DNA of 64,000 nt from a bacterium (GTDB taxonomy: Bacteria > Bacteroidota > Bacteroidia > NS11-12g > UBA9320), in assembly GCA_018223105.1 (NCBI GenBank), contig JAAEYY010000010.1, positions 9,199 to 73,198 of the forward strand. The letters run 5' to 3'. A program made the position numbers and the translations under genes. The notes beneath the pieces were generated by a model that saw nothing but the letters and a program-made list of their open reading frames with translations, did no database searches and had not been told where the DNA came from. Positions 52,487-60,108 of the stretch are shown in pieces (the first letter of the stretch is position 1; the number at the start of each line of letters is the position of its first letter).

Positions 52487-52626
52487 CGTGCGCACAATTC
52501 CTATCAACGTTGCATTTTGCTATAACGTGTCCGGAGACGTTAAGGTTTTGGGTCGATGGGAAGTTCTATCCTAAATGTAGACCCCACACCCTCTTCCGAC
52601 TCAAAACTTATACTCCCTTTATGATC
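52487..52626. repeat. 140-bp direct repeat, copy 1
   Basis: Identical to 53790-53929 except for two bases, offset 1303 bp. It covers the last ~28 codons of a histidine kinase (minus strand) plus 53 bp after its stop. The non-coding end includes palindromes GTGCGCAC and TAACGTGTCC/GGAGACGTTA. Confidence 0.97.
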
Positions 52627-52632
52627 TTCCAT
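52540..52632 (-). pseudogene. Histidine-kinase 3' fragment, copy 1
   Basis: About 30 codons ([18 protein letters not shown] and [11 protein letters not shown]) match the C-terminal end of a HATPase domain. The same end is at 53843 and a paralogous one is in the complete kinase at 58012. The upstream side joins the outer-membrane-barrel fragment 12-17 bp away. Confidence 0.85.
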
Positions 52633-53295: not shown

Positions 53296-53757
53296 TTACA
53301 ATTTGACAAATCTTATTTTACTTTCAAACGGTCCACTTAATTCAATATAGTAAACTCCTTGTTCTAATTCAGTAACATCTATTACTACTTTACTAGATCC
53401 ATTTTCTGCATTTACTTTCTGAACAGCTCGACCATTTTGGTCAACAAGTGTAATAATAGTATTTATATTGCTATTTACAGATTTCCATTCAACAGTAATA
53501 GTATTGTTTGTTGGATTTGGATAAGCTACTAAGTTAGTATTATCATCCAATTTTTCAATATTTAAGCCAGGGTTTGCTTCACCAGGAGGATCAAAACCGC
53601 CGCCATCAAATGTTGGACATGCTGGAGCTTCACATACACATGGGCCACCGACATTAATAGCTGTCCAAGCTTTGAATGTTTCAAATTCCTCGGTTGAGCA
53701 GGCACCAAATGAAAATCTAGCCGCAGCTCGTTCATTTGCTAAAGCTTGAAAGGTAGG
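53296..53757 (-). pseudogene. T9SS cargo protein, C-terminal fragment
   Basis: 153 codons open from just after a stop at 53758-53760. The reading ends in a type A T9SS sorting domain (LVAYPNPTNNTITVEWK ... GVYYIELSG ... SKIRFVKL) and includes a Cys-rich linker (CVCEAPACPTFDGGG). No start codon or signal peptide is visible, so it is 5' truncated and should not be exported. Confidence 0.75.
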
Positions 53758-53789: not shown

Positions 53790-53929
53790 CGTGCGCACAA
53801 TTCCTATCAACGTTGCATTTTGCTATAACGTGTCCGGAGACGTTAAGGTTTTGGGTCGATGGGAAGTTCTATCCTAAATGTTGACCCCACACCCTCTTCC
53901 GACTCAAAACTTATATTCCCTTTATGATC
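53790..53929. repeat. 140-bp direct repeat, copy 2
   Basis: Copy of 52487-52626 with two mismatches. It includes the end of a histidine-kinase fragment and the same palindromic non-coding tail. Confidence 0.97.
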
Positions 53930-54067
53930 CTCTATAATTGCATACGAAATAGACAAGCCCAGCCCGGTACCTTTACCCACCGGTTTGGAAGTATAAAAAG
54001 GCTCGAATATTTTGTTTTGGATATCTTTGATTTTATTAAATGACAAAAATTCTAATTTAGACCGCAA
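53843..54067 (-). pseudogene. Histidine-kinase 3' fragment, copy 2
   Basis: 74 codons. From about codon 15 it matches the G2 box/ATP-lid region and end of a HATPase domain ([20 protein letters not shown] and [10 protein letters not shown]), near-identical in protein to residues ~640-698 of the complete kinase at 58012. The first ~15 codons are unrelated, so the junction is near 54045. His and N boxes are missing, so it cannot function. Confidence 0.85.
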
Positions 54068-54095: not shown

Positions 54096-54103
54096 GTTAG
54101 CGG
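54096..54103 (+). other. GTTAGCGG attC-like core, site 2
   Basis: GTTAGCGG lies 17 nt before the ATG at 54120. Upstream CCGC-A-ATCTTT can pair with AAAGAT-GTTA-GCGG (54062-54103). Confidence 0.35.
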
Positions 54104-54119
54104 CAAAAAAGACATTCTA

Positions 54120-54608
54120 ATGAATAATGATTCCAACTTAAATCTTAGTACCGAACTTCAACATGGAATATCGGTAGATGACATCAAAGGCCTTCAAGTC
54201 TTGGTACTGCCCGAAAATTTCAACAGTGTATCTGACAAAGAAAGTTTGATTGAGGCTTCTGACTCTTTGAACATAAGTAAGATCTTTAAAGAGGAAGGTA
54301 TTAAATGCGCGAATGCGTTTGACCTAGGACTGGATGTTCCAGCTTTAGAGCGAAGAGGTTCGGATATTTGGTTGGGTCAAATCTTTATCATAGATAATGT
54401 TGCATTACCTCTTGTTATCAATGTCTTGACAGCTTTTATTCAAGACAAAATTTCTAAGAAGTCAAAGAAAAATGCCAATGTAGCACCAGAAAGGAAAGTG
54501 CATTTGGAGTTGAAAATGCATAAAAATGGCAACATTAATAAACTGAAGTATCACGGCGACTCCAAGACATTACTCAAAGTGTTACAAAACTTGAAAAATG
54601 ATGATTGA
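54120..54608 (+). CDS. Unknown protein, first gene of a two-gene cassette
   Basis: 162 residues with no signal peptide. The N-terminal half is charged; a hydrophobic helix (IFIIDNVALPLVINVLTAFIQDKI, ~residues 88-112) separates it from a short C-terminal beta domain (VHLELKMHKNGNINKLKYHGDSKTLLKVLQNL). This layout recalls small partner proteins of bacterial conflict systems, but I cannot assign a family. It overlaps the next gene by 11 bases, indicating translational coupling. Confidence 0.6.
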   Translation: MNNDSNLNLSTELQHGISVDDIKGLQVLVLPENFNSVSDKESLIEASDSLNISKIFKEEGIKCANAFDLGLDVPALERRGSDIWLGQIFIIDNVALPLVINVLTAFIQDKISKKSKKNANVAPERKVHLELKMHKNGNINKLKYHGDSKTLLKVLQNLKNDD

Positions 54609-55308
54609 GAATGTAGAAATAGACAATAAAGACTATCTCTCACAAGCCGAAAACCTAATTCAACAATGGTATGATTTTATTCAGAAAAGAAAATTGGATA
54701 AGGCGATTGCCATATGCAAAAGTTTAATACAATCTTACAAACAAATACTAAAAAACCGAGATTGGCCAAAAGCAACTGAAAACGATTATAATAACTTTCT
54801 AATTTTAGCAATCACCTTTAAAGCATTCGAAGACTATGCAGAGTTGGGAAAGATAATAACACAAGCTAAATGGGATCAAAATAACTCCAACCTTGAGGCA
54901 GTTTGGTTAAAGTTATGGGACTCTAAAGACAGACTTGATTCTGTAAGAGGTAGAATTCAGTCTGATATTGTTGAAAGAATTTACAGTAACCTTGAGGACT
55001 TATTAGATCAATATAGACAAAACTTTGGAAATGGTCTTTATGCAAGTCCAGAGATTCTAATAAAGAAGGAAACATGTTCTATTTGCAAAAATGATATTAG
55101 GGCTTGTTCGCATATTAAAGGTAGATGGTATGATGGACATATTTGTCGTGGAATTGCAGAAGATATTGAGTTAAAGACAATTTCTCTAGTAACTGTTCCA
55201 AAAGACCCTAGGTGTAGAATGTGGCCTTGGCGCGAGAGGGAAGATAGGGTTTTTGAAATGGTAGTGTTGACTTTATTTCAGGTAGACAACTTTTTAATTG
55301 ATGACTAA
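54598..55308 (+). CDS. Unknown protein with Cys/His putative zinc site, second gene of the cassette
   Basis: 236 residues (ATG 54598 or 54601). Residues 1-150 are helical. Near the C-terminus are Cys160, Cys163, Cys170, His172 and Cys183 in the order CxxC..D.R.C.H..G..Y.G..C, a probable metal site, followed by LKTISLVTVPKDPRCRMWPW. No family is assigned. Low GC, coupling to the upstream gene and flanking attC-like sites suggest a mobile two-gene module. Confidence 0.65.
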   Translation: MMIENVEIDNKDYLSQAENLIQQWYDFIQKRKLDKAIAICKSLIQSYKQILKNRDWPKATENDYNNFLILAITFKAFEDYAELGKIITQAKWDQNNSNLEAVWLKLWDSKDRLDSVRGRIQSDIVERIYSNLEDLLDQYRQNFGNGLYASPEILIKKETCSICKNDIRACSHIKGRWYDGHICRGIAEDIELKTISLVTVPKDPRCRMWPWREREDRVFEMVVLTLFQVDNFLIDD

Positions 55309-55320
55309 AAAAACCGGTGC

Positions 55321-55446
55321 TAACAGTGTATATAAAAAATAGGTGAAATAATAGTAATATCAAGTCTTTTAGCACGTTTCACACACTTTATGCATAGCCA
55401 ACATTTTGGTGTTTCAGAATCGCCTACTTTTCATATATTAAACGTT
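55321..55446. other. attC-like element after the two-gene cassette
   Basis: It begins TAACAGTGTATATAAAAAATAGG and ends with CCTACTTTTCATATATTAAACGTT. The arms are imperfectly complementary (outer AAC/GTT, TATAT and TAGG/CCTA blocks), starting 12 bp after the stop at 55308. It is long (126 bp), with an internal asymmetric centre, as many attC sites are. Confidence 0.4.
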
Positions 55447-55455
55447 GACATATAT

Positions 55456-56334
55456 TTAAAGTGAATAGTTTAATAATAAACGATCAGAGACCAATTCAGA
55501 CTCCAAAGTTTGACCCTCCATTTGGAATCTTCTTAACATAGAGCGGCCGACAGATACGAACATTTCTTCCTCAAAAAGACCCGGTGGTATTGGCAAATCA
55601 CATAAATAATTTCCTGACTTTTTATTTCCATCAATACTAAGTGCGACACGAACACCTTTTGATTTGGCATGATCTATTGACTCCAAAAGCTCTTCAAGTT
55701 TGAATGACTGCGCTCCGTATAAAATACTCTGACTATGACTGTATGGTGGGTCACAGTAAATCAAATCTCCGGTTTGGGCCATATCAAAAATCTCCTTGTA
55801 GTCAACATTCAAGAAAGTAACGTTTTTCATTCTTATAGACCATTCTTTGACTCTTTTTCGAAATGTTTCAACGGGTATTGGTTTGTGTACGCCACAAGGT
55901 GTACTCATATATCCATCTGCTTTTCTAAACCTGACAATTCCACCATAGCATGAACGGGTCAAATACAGAAAGTCTGCTCCATTATGTTTTGAATTAAAAG
56001 ATGCCAAAACGCTATTATAAACCTCTTTTTTGTCCTCGGTATCAAGCCTGTTACGCCTTTCTGCATACCATTCTATTAGTTCTTCTGGGTCGTCCTTTAG
56101 CTTTTGCCATATTTCGACCAAAGGAGCGAATATATCAGAACCAACTCCTGCAATTGGAGCAACAGTTGCCAAAACTGCACCACTTCCTAAAAACGGTTCA
56201 TAGAAAGTTCCGAAGTCTGGAGGAAAACACTTAGTTATTTCACCTGCGAATTTTTGCTTGTTTCCAACCCATTTTAACAATTGAGATTTGGGAGGTGTGT
56301 ATGTAGGGAACTTTGAATCCGTAGAAAATTGCAT
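55456..56334 (-). CDS. DNA adenine methylase, D12 class (type II RM)
   Basis: 292 residues. Motif I FYEPFLGSGAV (44-54) and the catalytic DPPY (195-198) give the alpha order of D12-class N6-adenine methyltransferases (Dam, DpnM, EcoRV type). KWVGNKQKFAGEI is the N-terminal SAM-binding start. It should protect host DNA from the endonuclease encoded on the other side of the operator. The recognition site cannot be read from sequence. Confidence 0.93.
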   Translation of the reverse strand: MQFSTDSKFPTYTPPKSQLLKWVGNKQKFAGEITKCFPPDFGTFYEPFLGSGAVLATVAPIAGVGSDIFAPLVEIWQKLKDDPEELIEWYAERRNRLDTEDKKEVYNSVLASFNSKHNGADFLYLTRSCYGGIVRFRKADGYMSTPCGVHKPIPVETFRKRVKEWSIRMKNVTFLNVDYKEIFDMAQTGDLIYCDPPYSHSQSILYGAQSFKLEELLESIDHAKSKGVRVALSIDGNKKSGNYLCDLPIPPGLFEEEMFVSVGRSMLRRFQMEGQTLESELVSDRLLLNYSL

Positions 56335-56418: not shown

Positions 56419-56670
56419 TTGAAAAAGACTATTCATAGTAGAGAATACAGAGTTCTACTTGAAACCCTTTACAGTTTAAGGGTTGGCAACAACTTACTTC
56501 AATCTCAACTAGCAGAGAAACTAGATGTTCCACAATCATTTATAAGTAAAATAGAAAGTGGCGAGAGACGAATTGATGTAGTTGAATTAAAGGAAATAGT
56601 TGAATCTATGAAAACCAGTTTACCCGAATTCATTAAAGAGTACATAAAAAGATTGGATGCTACCGAATGA
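56419..56670 (+). CDS. XRE-family HTH regulator (restriction-modification controller-like)
   Basis: 83 residues starting at TTG 56419 (no suitable ATG). The HTH is at residues ~27-60 ([27 protein letters not shown]), the layout and size of C proteins that control RM systems. It overlaps the endonuclease gene by 14 bases, so it is likely to delay or set endonuclease expression through the operator upstream. Confidence 0.88.
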
Positions 56671-57523
56671 CAAATACAAAGAACTTGGCTTAGAGTTTTG
56701 GGCAAATATCAAATTGCTTAACCAGAGATTGGGTTATGCAGAAAGAAGAACTAGTAAGAATCCTAATCCCGGCTTTGTAGTTCCTACTGTTGAGCAAATT
56801 CTTCAAGTTTTTAAAGACGAAGGGTTAAATCCTGAAAGACTTGTAAATGATAATGAACTGACTGAGTTAGGCCTCCTTCTCCAAGAATATATGCAATACA
56901 GGGGTGATGTTTTGACCAACGACGTTGAACCAAACCTCATGAATAAGGATCAAGCTAAAGACCTATTTGAGACCAAAAGAGCAGAGTTAAACCCAAATTG
57001 TCCACTACCAATGAATAAGCAAAAGGGAGAAAAACGAGATCACGCTTTTTTAACTGGATTAGTCAACATGCTAGTTGAAGCAAACAAAGGAAATTGTGAT
57101 TGTGACTATGACCCAAGAGAATTAACTGCGTTGACAATTGACAAATTCCCTGTAAGAACTCTATCTAGGCGAGTTGACGGAGCATTCCCAAATATTGTTG
57201 ATCCAAAAGCAATTTGGGAAATTAAAGAATACTACTACACAACAACATTCGGAAGTCGGGTTGCAGACGGAGTTTATGAAACTCAATTAGACGGATGGGA
57301 ACTTTGGGAAGCAAAGACTAATCTTGGAAGGGAAATCAATCATTATTTGATAGTTGACGATTATTTCACTTGGTGGACGTGTGGTCGCTCTTATCTCTGT
57401 CGCCTTTTAGATTCAATGCACATGGGGCTAGTTACTGAAGTGATTTTTGGGAAAGAAGTCACAAGGAGGATTCCCGCTTTAGTTAAAGAATGGACGGAGT
57501 GTGAAAATTGTCAAGATAAATAA
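56657..57523 (+). CDS. Probable type II restriction endonuclease
   Basis: 288 residues. A PD-(D/E)xK-like core is seen: Asp174 ([10 protein letters not shown]), Asp182 and Glu188-Ile-Lys190 (IWEIKEYY). The rest matches no family I can name. The context with the D12 methylase and C-like regulator makes restriction endonuclease the most likely role. The start at 56657 is inside the regulator gene. It could be solitary (no second subunit). Confidence 0.75.
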
Positions 57524-57630: not shown

Positions 57631-58029
57631 ATGCAAAAAAACAATATTGAAAATATAGTATCTGTAATTTCAGGAGACTCTGATATTAACTCAATTATTG
57701 TAAAAGGTCATTTACTGTCAAGGGAGTATATAATGAAATATGTTAGAAATAATAACAGCCTTCTCGCATCTAAAACAAAAAAATTGGATTTTGAAACACT
57801 GTTAGCAATGGCAAGAACCGCGGGGGTAGAGAATTCTCTTATTTATAGGTTAGATGTAGTGTTTAAACTTTATAACTCATGTCATTCTCTTGATAATAGT
57901 AAAAAACTTGAATTCAACATATTAATTGAGTGTAATATCCGAAAACTAGGCTCGAATTCAATAACCGATGACATTACCAATTATATTGCACACAATATAT
58001 ACGAACTCCAGCTACTTTGTAATAGGTAG
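57631..58029 (+). CDS. Hypothetical protein
   Basis: 132 residues, Asn/Ser/Leu-rich and mostly helical, with no signal peptide. Low GC like the RM genes. Its last 18 bases overlap the end of the convergent histidine kinase. No family recognised; a cassette-borne or accessory gene is likely. Confidence 0.4.
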   Translation: MQKNNIENIVSVISGDSDINSIIVKGHLLSREYIMKYVRNNNSLLASKTKKLDFETLLAMARTAGVENSLIYRLDVVFKLYNSCHSLDNSKKLEFNILIECNIRKLGSNSITDDITNYIAHNIYELQLLCNR

Positions 58030-60108
58030 TTCAATTCTGAACAGCGAACCTTCTCCTTCTTTAGATTCAAAGTTTATTACGCCATTGTGATCTTCAATAA
58101 TTGCATAAGATATTGATAGGCCTAATCCTGTTCCTTTGCCTACTGGCTTAGATGTATAAAAAGGCTCAAAAACTTTCGACTGAATATTTTCTGGAATCCC
58201 ATTGCCATTATCTCGCACTTTTATAACTATACAATCATCCTCTAGAATCGAGGAAACGTCTATTTCTGCTTTAGAAATGTCTGATGAATGCCTGTCTTCT
58301 ACCGCATGAATAGCATTATTTAGAAGATTTAGAAATACTTGATTCAATTTACCTAGTTGACATTGAATATCCGGAATATTTTCGTCTAAACTCAGATTTA
58401 CTTTTATTGAGTTCAACTCATTTTTAAGTATAGCTAATGTAGATTTCAGTCCTTTGTTAATATTAGCTTGTTGACTAGCACCAGAATCACTTCTACTGAA
58501 TGTTCTTAACCCTTCAACTATATTATATGTTCTTTTAGCACCTTCCTCAATTCCATCAATTAATTCATCAGTTTCTTTTAGTGTGTAGTCCAGTTCAATT
58601 TCATCCTCGTAAGCTTCAATTTTCTTCATTTCAGACTCTTGATCTTCAACACTTGGTAAAGCTTTATATCGACTCAATAGTTCACTTATTATCTCAATAT
58701 TCTCGCGTAATGGTATGACATTCGCAGTGACATAATTAATAGGATTATTAATTTCATGGGCTATACCAGCGGTAAGAACACCCAGACTTGCCATTTTCTC
58801 AGATTCAATTAATTTCACTTGTGCTTTTTTCAAGTCTTCCAGAGTTTTCTCTAGCTCTTCCGTTCTCTGCTTTACCTTTTCTTCCAAAATCACATTTTGA
58901 TTTTTTATTAGGTTCTCATTTCGTGCTAACTCTTCTATAACCCGCTCTTGAGCTTCATCAGTTTCTTTGCGAAGGGTATTTATTCTATCAGCTAATGCCA
59001 CTGAAATTAGAATTGTTTCAACAGCAATCCCAATAGGTAAACTGAATATCGATAGGTTGTTCGTAGGGATTATTCCTGAGTCTTTCATTACATAAAAAAT
59101 TAAGCCTACAATTAATAAAGACCATGAAAGAAGATATATTTTGGCACTCCTTACTCCTTTAAGTGAAAGCAGTAAACTTGTAAGTAATATTACCATTGCA
59201 CCATACAATCCTGAAAGTTGTATCAGTTGATAAGATATGTTAAGCAAACCTAAAAAATAGGTGACTGCTACTATAGAATATAAGAAGATTAGAATAATGT
59301 ATAAGATGTAATAAATCTTCTTCAACCGTTCTCTAATTTTAAGAAAATTTAGGGCAAATAGTGCACCGAGAATTCCACTAAAGGAAGAGCCAAGGAACAT
59401 GAAATGATTTGACCATACAGGCCTTATACCTAGCAGATAATAATCAATACCTAGAAAACTGAATTGAGCTAATCCAATGAAAAGTATGTAACCTAAATAG
59501 TACCAGTAGTTTCTGTCATGAGTATAAAATGCAAGTACTAGGTTATATAGGAGCATACATAACATAATACCTGCAAACGCTCCCAGAAAAATATTTCTGA
59601 TAGAAATAAAACTACTATAAGACTCTTCCTCTGCTATTATTAACGGAACTACATAGAATGTCTTAGTACTAACTTTGATAAATACATCAATTTCATCTTT
59701 GCCATTAAAATCTATATCAAAAGTTGGATAAGGGTCTTTATCTGATCTTCGCTCTTTACTTATGTATTTTCCACTAATTTGTTTCACTAATTCTCCTCTG
59801 GATTTAGTATAGGCACTAATTGAATCAAAATAAGGTATTGGTGAGTAAAGCTTGTAATGATTTGTCTCAAAAGGTTTTATCAACTTGAACTTTATAAGAA
59901 CTGAACTGTCACGAGGACCAAGGTCAATTACTGTTGATTCTATCTTTGTAAACTTCAGATTATCAGATGCTTGGTCTTTGAGACTATAGTCATGCGGGAT
60001 AAGGCTATAAGAAACAGACTTCCCATCAATTTGAATTGTACGGTCAATGTTCTGAGCAAACAAATGACTTGACAGGACGATCATTAGGGTTAGTAAAACT
60101 GATTTCAT
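58012..60108 (-). CDS. 7TMR-DISM histidine kinase
   Basis: 698 residues. A signal peptide (to ~19) is followed by a periplasmic 7TMR-DISMED2-like beta domain (~25-165), a seven-helix 7TMR-DISM membrane domain (~170-375), a coiled coil (375-437) and HisKA with phosphoacceptor His451 (GIAHEINNPINY). HATPase_c comes last (DNGNGI ... [14 protein letters not shown]). It has no receiver domain of its own. Its start overlaps the GNAT gene stop by 4 bases. The extracytoplasmic domain suggests it senses a small molecule. The kinase-tail fragments at 52.5 and 53.8 kb derive from a paralogue. Confidence 0.93.
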   Translation of the reverse strand: MKSVLLTLMIVLSSHLFAQNIDRTIQIDGKSVSYSLIPHDYSLKDQASDNLKFTKIESTVIDLGPRDSSVLIKFKLIKPFETNHYKLYSPIPYFDSISAYTKSRGELVKQISGKYISKERRSDKDPYPTFDIDFNGKDEIDVFIKVSTKTFYVVPLIIAEEESYSSFISIRNIFLGAFAGIMLCMLLYNLVLAFYTHDRNYWYYLGYILFIGLAQFSFLGIDYYLLGIRPVWSNHFMFLGSSFSGILGALFALNFLKIRERLKKIYYILYIILIFLYSIVAVTYFLGLLNISYQLIQLSGLYGAMVILLTSLLLSLKGVRSAKIYLLSWSLLIVGLIFYVMKDSGIIPTNNLSIFSLPIGIAVETILISVALADRINTLRKETDEAQERVIEELARNENLIKNQNVILEEKVKQRTEELEKTLEDLKKAQVKLIESEKMASLGVLTAGIAHEINNPINYVTANVIPLRENIEIISELLSRYKALPSVEDQESEMKKIEAYEDEIELDYTLKETDELIDGIEEGAKRTYNIVEGLRTFSRSDSGASQQANINKGLKSTLAILKNELNSIKVNLSLDENIPDIQCQLGKLNQVFLNLLNNAIHAVEDRHSSDISKAEIDVSSILEDDCIVIKVRDNGNGIPENIQSKVFEPFYTSKPVGKGTGLGLSISYAIIEDHNGVINFESKEGEGSLFRIELPITK

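What the first reader, a model, noticed from the sequence alone, without database searches (positions are those of the whole stretch)
54120..55308. Two-gene unknown module with a Cys/His metal motif, possibly a defence system
The coupled genes (11-bp overlap) have no recognised family. The second has CxxC..D.R.C.H..G..Y.G..C before a SLVTVP.DPR segment. They are low in GC, flanked by attC-like sites and beside a restriction-modification system, as many phage-defence modules are. The hydrophobic helix in the first protein could mean membrane action.
Basis: inference. Interest (0 to 1): 0.62.

Follow-up and report, generated by a model that had tools for sequence, protein, structure and literature searches.

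The report
Mobile gene pair with phage-protease relic
Two overlapping genes form a rare but very widespread mobile pair in bacteria and archaea, and one of them carries a worn-down piece of the enzyme that phages use to mature their heads, which suggests an untested role in conflicts with viruses.

Summary
In detail: two coupled genes (54120-54608, P1, 162 aa; 54598-55308, P2, 236 aa; 11-base overlap) hit no Pfam, NCBIfam or PADLOC family. They are a conserved module. A pattern scan of one genome per species gave 74 loci, 72 encoding P2-like proteins. P1 lies directly upstream in 64, is fused to P2-like sequence in 4, cut off by a contig edge in 2, absent in 2. Hosts span many bacterial phyla, archaea, plasmids and an archaeal virus. 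P1 and P2 distances correlate (Mantel 0.71). P2 is a helical bundle plus a Cys/His hairpin homologous to the Ser-bearing half of zinc-knuckle head-maturation proteases beside phage portal genes (hhalign 98.4%). The catalytic Ser position is invariant, the His-bearing half is missing and the Glu mostly lost: a predicted pseudoprotease. In the four fused proteins the H/S/E triad is intact. In the window the pair is an integron-type cassette; in Enterobacteriaceae it is cargo of an ISLad2 unit on conjugative plasmids. My reading: a mobile anti-virus module in which P2 mimics or senses the head protease or procapsid and P1 is the partner/effector. Anatomy, pairing and mobility are shown; the function is inferred, and no assay or controlled defence-island enrichment was possible.

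The parts
54096..54101 (+). GTTAGC, 5' boundary of the cassette-like unit
   Evidence: Homology to the 90.5% identical copy L050 begins at 54106, just inside this core; L050 has GTTAGC at the equivalent place, preceded by a palindromic attC-like site
54120..54608 (+). P1, 162 aa: small alpha/beta protein with an apolar helix (res 93-115)
   Evidence: model pLDDT 89.4; homologue upstream of P2 in 64 of 72 P2-encoding loci
54396..54464 (+). apolar helix of P1 (residues 93-115), possibly membrane-inserting
   Evidence: DSSP on model; hydropathy
54598..55308 (+). P2, 236 aa: five-helix bundle + Cys/His beta-hairpin domain homologous to phage head-maturation proteases
54634..55026 (+). helical half of P2 (residues 13-143); takes the place of the His-bearing half of the protease
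   Evidence: model; absent from the P2/phage-protease alignment, which covers residues 147-211 only
55036..55230 (+). pseudoprotease/zinc-hairpin domain of P2 (residues 147-211)
   Evidence: hhalign 98.4%, E 4.2e-15 against 12 phage proteins
55045..55047 (+). Ser150 codon, position of the protease catalytic Ser
   Evidence: Ser in 59 of 59 rows of A4 (55 P2-type, 4 fused), 10 residues before the first Cys in 56 of 59, 4 of 4 fused and 12 of 12 phage proteins
55075..55146 (+). C160-C183 Cys/His knuckle (C160, C163, C170, H172, C183)
   Evidence: invariant in A4; C170-P201 were partly selected by the search pattern, S150, C160 and C163 were not
55317..55450 (+). attC-like imperfect palindrome at the 3' end of the cassette
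   Evidence: arm complementarity beaten by 28 of 2000 shuffles; 68% identical site at G000:C36:181226-181372 behind a macro-domain-like ORF
55456..56334 (-). neighbour: Dam-type N6-adenine methyltransferase (not part of the module)
   Evidence: PF02086 E 8.9e-33
56419..57523 (+). neighbours: HTH protein and predicted type II restriction enzyme (DUF7690/DUF7687; not part of the module)
   Evidence: PADLOC REase_II E 2.6e-58

Best explanation
A horizontally mobile two-protein module. SHOWN BY SEQUENCE: P1 and P2 are inherited as a pair across bacteria and archaea. P2 is a helical bundle joined to a Cys/His hairpin domain homologous to the Ser-strand / zinc-knuckle / (Glu)-strand part of a class of phage head-maturation (prohead) proteases. 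The Ser position is kept, the His-bearing half is replaced by helices, and the Glu is usually lost. P1 is a small alpha/beta protein with a very apolar helix, and in four genomes a P1-like domain is fused to a full H/S/E protease-like domain. INFERRED: P2 is a pseudoprotease that still recognises what head proteases recognise (protease subunits, scaffold, portal or capsid precursor). In an infected cell it acts as a decoy that poisons prohead maturation or as a sensor of it, and the helical half relays this to P1, which acts directly or by membrane disturbance to stop the infection. The module therefore most likely serves conflict with tailed phages and related viruses. Confidence by step: conserved unit 0.97; homology to head-protease domain 0.9; non-catalytic P2 0.8; role in conflict with viruses/mobile elements 0.5; decoy or sensor mechanism about 0.3.
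For: P1 directly upstream of P2 in 64 of 72 P2-encoding loci, fused in 4; P1/P2 distance matrices correlate, r 0.71, 0 of 2000 permutations. P2 vs phage set: 98.4%, E 4e-15; fused vs phage set 98.5% over 117 columns including the His; P1 vs fused N-terminus 86.4%, E 4.7e-6. PHROG 'head maturation protease' families hit 9 and 3 of 59 P2-like rows, which include the 4 fused proteins, and 3 of 12 phage rows. Two of the phage genes are annotated next to portal and head genes. Structure search in viral models lists prohead proteases or other phage proteins at ranks 1, 2, 4 and 5 (prob 0.85-0.99, E 0.08-0.57). Mobility: cassette boundaries, ISLad2-X-FRG-P1-P2 unit in 6 of 6 enterobacterial loci read, 182 of 211 matching plasmid records predicted conjugative, carriage by a pleolipovirus, patchy distribution.
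Against: No functional data. No PADLOC system matches. Defence neighbours are a minority of the 110 flanking ORFs and no control was run. The structural hits in the viral library are individually not significant (E at least 0.08). Direction of descent (protease to P2, or a shared zinc hairpin acquired by both) is not proved. P1 has no recognisable fold relative outside the family (best PDB Z 3.8). The P1/fused similarity is moderate and the fused set has only 4 rows.
Confidence: 0.5

Rival explanations
1. The Cys/His hairpin is a generic zinc interaction module that phage head proteases and P2 took up independently; the pair does something unrelated to capsids, for example stress- or redox-linked regulation.
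For: 25 of 59 P2-like proteins carry a further SEC-C zinc motif, a module of many unrelated proteins (general knowledge); hosts include organisms with diverse lifestyles.
Against: Homology is not only the knuckle: the Ser 10 residues upstream is shared (59 of 59 rows, 4 of 4 fused, 12 of 12 phage), as is the following (E)xSxVxxP strand, and fused relatives have the whole protease core.
Confidence: 0.22
2. Type II toxin-antitoxin pair: P1 with its apolar helix is the toxin and P2 the zinc-bearing antitoxin (or the reverse), kept as an addictive cassette.
For: Two small overlapping genes in a cassette, on plasmids and IS units.
Against: No known toxin or antitoxin family in either; P1-like domain fused to a protease-like domain in 4 genomes, unusual for a toxin and its antitoxin; P2 is shortened next to an IS element beside an intact P1 in E. 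coli AW1.7 (IS3) and in a Klebsiella plasmid (IS1), which argues against a toxic P1.
Confidence: 0.15
3. An active protease system: P1 regulates a P2-type protease (fused and active in some genomes) that cuts a host or viral protein.
For: The four fused proteins keep His, Ser and Glu, and Ser150 is invariant in P2.
Against: P2 itself lacks the His-bearing half and the window copy has Thr at the Glu position; Glu in 18 of 59 rows, 4 of them the fused ones.
Confidence: 0.13

Closest known systems
Phage head-maturation (prohead) proteases with a Cys/His knuckle (PHROG 16951 / 18299; beside portal in Moorella phage MTATph1 and Acinetobacter phage ME3)
   Same: Ser strand, Cys/His knuckle with the same spacing from Ser, following (E)xSxVxxP strand
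   Different: P2 lacks the His-bearing N-terminal half, has a helical bundle instead, mostly lacks the Glu, is paired with P1 and is not in a head gene cluster
SPN3US gp117, a diverged head-protease homologue without the aligned catalytic His (PMC5694885, passages seen)
   Same: keeps the Ser, no aligned His
   Different: encoded by a phage together with an active protease; keeps an acidic residue; not a cellular pair
SEC-C proteins ('zinc chelation protein SecC')
   Same: public annotation of several relatives; 25 of 59 P2-like proteins have the motif
   Different: window P2 has no SEC-C motif; the conserved core is the other Cys/His domain
ISLad2 (IS1202 family insertion sequences)
   Same: 6 of 6 enterobacterial loci read have ISLad2 transposase, a hypothetical gene, an FRG gene, P1 and P2 in this order
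   Different: the published ISLad2 is 1647 bp (PMC10132070, passages seen), so the four genes are extra cargo; no link to the window beyond P1/P2 homology

Membership tests
Phage head-maturation protease | Homologous Ser/zinc-knuckle core | tested here: met
   hhalign 98.4%, E 4e-15; Ser spacing
Phage head-maturation protease | Catalytic His in the N-terminal half of the domain | tested here: not met
   Only P2 residues 147-211 align, the His half does not; His present in 12 of 12 phage and 4 of 4 fused rows
Phage head-maturation protease | Third residue (Glu/Asp) of the triad | tested here: not met
   Thr194 in the window; Glu in 18 of 59 rows, 4 of them fused proteins
Phage head-maturation protease | Gene in a portal/capsid cluster | tested here: not met
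   Window neighbours are R-M genes; the phage relatives do lie there
Integron gene cassette | attC-like site at the 3' end, homology confined between GTTAGC and GCTAAC cores | tested here: met
   the hairpin energy of the 137-base stretch is not special (z 0.66)
Integron gene cassette | Integron integrase in the genome | tested here: not met
   No TIGR02249 match over cut-off; best 118.7 bits against 265, profile positions 180-240 unmatched; genome about 90% complete
Known anti-phage defence systems | Match to a catalogued system | tested here: not met
   PADLOC, (weak hits only, partly via the SEC-C tail)
Anti-phage defence (general) | Enrichment beside known defence genes | tested here: inconclusive
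   R-M, DarT, Drt3a, PglX-like and housekeeping genes among 110 flanking ORFs; no control
Anti-phage defence (general) | Protection against phage | not testable with these tools
   needs plaque assays
SEC-C protein | SEC-C motif PF02810 | tested here: not met
   absent in window P2; present in 25 of 59 relatives
Type II toxin-antitoxin | Known toxin or antitoxin fold | tested here: inconclusive
   no family match; P1 fold unmatched

The most novel reading that the evidence does not exclude
A previously undescribed antiviral strategy shared by bacteria and archaea: a cellular pseudo-copy of the viral head-maturation protease (P2), captured from tailed viruses and wired to a membrane-active or otherwise lethal partner (P1). 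It works as a decoy or sensor of procapsid assembly, and mobile elements, including a capsid-less archaeal pleolipovirus, carry it to exclude head-tailed competitors.
Probability: 0.28. Interest if true: 0.92.

Novelty: categorically new. Interest (0 to 1): 0.72.

Why it matters
A piece of the viral head-assembly machinery appears, in degenerate form, in a mobile two-gene unit found from cyanobacteria and Flavobacteria to Methanosarcina and haloarchaea, and on conjugative plasmids of Enterobacteriaceae. If it acts on virus assembly it would be a defence principle that targets prohead maturation by mimicry. If not, it is still an unnamed, broadly conserved family now annotated only as hypothetical or 'zinc chelation protein SecC'. 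The E. coli copies make it directly testable.

Tried and rejected
Single-protein search of 395 phylum genomes found only the own genome. The A6 profile over 395 phylum genomes matched 245, but nearly all listed matches cover only the SEC-C tail end of the profile, often in open frames of about 1000-1100 aa that I take for SecA; I do not count them as the module, which leaves 1 of 395 (not every match is listed there). A9 found nothing convincing in the same genomes. Viral-contig scans with the single protein, A9 and A11 gave no confirmed relative; the strict pattern gave 0. Phage tblastn with fused L089 gave none. A match in G471 (L013, E 6.8e-4, stops inside) was dropped as spurious. Loci L052 and L100 (and viral L026) are chance pattern hits without a P2. 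L033 has only a P2 C-terminal fragment and no P1; L091 has P2 without a detectable P1. PDB matches of the P2 helical half (best Z 8.9, DUF309 protein, 106 residues, 2.8 A) are in the range common for helical bundles and not used. P1 has weak, non-significant PD-(D/E)XK-type hits in the viral library (E 0.1 and above), not used; its one significant hit there, A0A7U3HSL9 (181 aa), has the length of the Humcor2 P1 and is probably that same protein. Six neighbouring genes compared with the PDB gave nothing. Literature searches found no description of the pair (listings only, with passages read in PMC7911831, PMC5694885 and PMC10132070); only an open-access subset is held.

Full report
WHAT IS THERE. 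Two ORFs on the + strand, 54120-54608 (P1, 162 aa) and 54598-55308 (P2, 236 aa), overlap by 11 bases. Neither reaches a Pfam cut-off, PADLOC and NCBIfam give only chance-level hits, and no solved structure matches by sequence. P2 gives one informative hit, PHROG 16951 (unknown function), E 9.3e-7 over residues 156-205, the Cys/His stretch. The window belongs to a 3.09-Mb, 49-contig genome that is about 90% complete.

THE PAIR IS A CONSERVED UNIT. tblastn of P2 against plasmid and phage records found distant relatives. In each of the annotated loci L003 (Halorubrum pleolipovirus Humcor2), L004 (Haloterrigena plasmid), L005 (Pseudoalteromonas plasmid), L008 (Klebsiella plasmid) and L009 (Acinetobacter plasmid) an ORF of 146-181 aa stands directly before the P2 relative, and L006 (no annotation) has one too. 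The upstream proteins align with P1. A degenerate DNA pattern for C-x-H-x5-Y-[ND]-G-x2-C-x14-V-x2-P was then run over one genome per species: 74 loci. Two are chance hits without P2 (L052, L100). Of the other 72, an iterated P1 profile finds P1 directly upstream in 64; 4 have a P1-like domain fused (L070, L075, L085, L089); 2 are cut by a contig edge (L062, L067); L033 is a P2 C-terminal fragment without P1, and L091 has no detectable P1. None of the 16 viral-contig loci found with the same pattern has P1. The two genes overlap in 48 of 64 pairs, by a heuristic choice of start codon. P1 and P2 distance matrices correlate over 51 loci (r 0.71; 0 of 2000 permutations as high). A P2 tree puts the window copy with a Flavobacteriia MAG (89% identity), then cyanobacteria, an Ignavibacteria MAG, a Latescibacteria MAG and Methanosarcina (starred set of 10 rows). 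By the P2 profile only the own genome of 395 sampled in the phylum has the module, once matches to the SEC-C end alone are set aside. So it is rare and patchy but very wide.

P2 CARRIES A HEAD-PROTEASE RELIC. The Cys/His stretch also occurs inside phage proteins encoded next to portal or head genes (Moorella phage MTATph1, Acinetobacter phage ME3) and in viral contigs. Twelve of these align with an invariant His, Ser, Cys/His knuckle and, in 10 of 12, a Glu two residues before S/A-x-V. 10 of 12 match PHROG 16951, 3 match PHROG 18299 'head maturation protease', and 1 matches PHROG 3244 'head maturation protease'. Profile comparison of P2 with this set gives 98.4% probability, E 4.2e-15, over P2 residues 147-211. 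The Ser is not part of the search pattern, yet it is Ser in 59 of 59 aligned P2-like rows (55 P2-type, 4 fused) and stands 10 residues before the first Cys in 56 of them, in 4 of 4 fused and in 12 of 12 phage proteins. Upstream of residue 147 the similarity ends: AlphaFold2 (pLDDT 90.4) shows five helices there and a long beta hairpin with the knuckle after it. The Glu position is Thr194 in the window and Glu in 18 of 59 rows, four of which are the fused proteins. I conclude that P2 has lost the His half of the active site and is probably not a protease. A partly similar case, a head-protease homologue in phage SPN3US that keeps Ser and Asp but not the aligned His, is described in PMC5694885 (passages seen). 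In a viral structure library, P2's model has a prohead protease at rank 1 and other phage proteins at ranks 2, 4 and 5, with good probabilities (0.85-0.99) but E-values of 0.08-0.57; further prohead proteases stand lower in the list.

FUSED RELATIVES LINK P1 TO A WHOLE PROTEASE DOMAIN. L070, L075, L085 and L089 (Flavobacterium, Anaerolineae, Bacteroidetes, Poribacteria) encode an N-terminal region that matches the P1 profile (86.4%, E 4.7e-6), followed by a domain matching the phage set over 117 columns including the His (98.5%). His, Ser and Glu are present in 4 of 4. This makes descent of P2 from a protease more economical than independent uptake of a zinc hairpin, but does not prove it.

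P1. The model (pLDDT 89.4) is a small alpha/beta protein with a 23-residue helix (93-115). The family has a very apolar stretch there (43 of 53 sequences reach a Kyte-Doolittle mean of 1.6 over 19 residues). No PDB fold stands out (best Z 3.8). Gly146 is invariant in 47 of 47 and Pro31 present in 45 of 47.

MOBILITY. The window and L050 are 90.5% identical from 54106 to 55323, with no match outside. These limits lie at GTTAGC (54096) and GCTAAC (55319) cores. The stretch after the pair is an imperfect palindrome (28 of 2000 shuffles as good), a 68% identical site follows an ORF that I read as a macro domain elsewhere in the genome, and L050 has a palindromic site before the pair. Folding of the whole 137-base stretch shows no unusual stability (z 0.66), and no integron integrase reaches the cut-off in the incomplete genome. 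I call it an integron-type cassette, probably in a cluster without its integrase. In Enterobacteriaceae an ISLad2-type transposase, a hypothetical gene, an FRG-domain gene, P1 and P2 stand in this order in 6 of 6 loci read, on chromosomes and plasmids. 24 of 5426 E. coli genomes hold it, and 182 of 211 matching plasmid records are predicted conjugative. An induced archaeal provirus without a tailed-phage head carries it (PMC7911831, passages seen, describes Humcor2 but says nothing on these two genes in the passages seen).

WHAT IT MAY DO. Pairing, mobility, patchiness, R-M neighbours and a relic of a phage assembly enzyme together point to conflict with viruses. The best guess is that P2 engages head-assembly proteins as decoy or sensor and P1 executes. 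Against this: no catalogued defence system matches, flanking genes are mixed and uncontrolled, and nothing functional is known. Toxin-antitoxin is less likely because of the fusions and because P2 is shortened next to IS elements beside an intact P1 in two enterobacterial loci. I rate it categorically new as a system, since no known system matches; its one recognised domain is a variant of a known one. Literature searches were limited to open-access text.

Noticed in passing
window 52487-52632 and 53790-53935: 146-nt direct repeat, 97% identical; the second copy overlaps a C-terminal fragment resembling the histidine kinase of 58012-60108 (minus strand), so it looks like duplicated kinase-gene debris.
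   Followed up: no
window 53296-53550 (-): ORF ending like a type 9 secretion sorting domain (label recalled, not from a call), apparently a fragment.
   Followed up: no
window 56657-57523: Restriction-enzyme-like protein with DUF7690 + DUF7687 (E 3.7e-24 and 9e-87), PADLOC REase_II E 2.6e-58, with an HTH gene and a divergent Dam-type methyltransferase.
   Followed up: partly
window 57631-58029: 132-aa ORF without family; weak PADLOC LmuA match E 0.0032.
   Followed up: no
L140 (G000:C36:181226-181372 +/- 1.5 kb): Second attC-like site in the same genome, following an ORF that reads like a macro domain (my reading); suggests more cassettes.
   Followed up: partly
L104 12670-14848 and equivalents: A hypothetical gene and an FRG-domain gene always accompany P1-P2 in the ISLad2 unit in the 6 enterobacterial loci read; they may be part of the functional unit there.
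   Followed up: partly
L033 1625-3491: Methyltransferase-like ORF (type I R-M style), then an ORF that reads like an AlbA/Schlafen-type protein (my reading), then a stand-alone P2-type Cys/His domain without P1.
   Followed up: no
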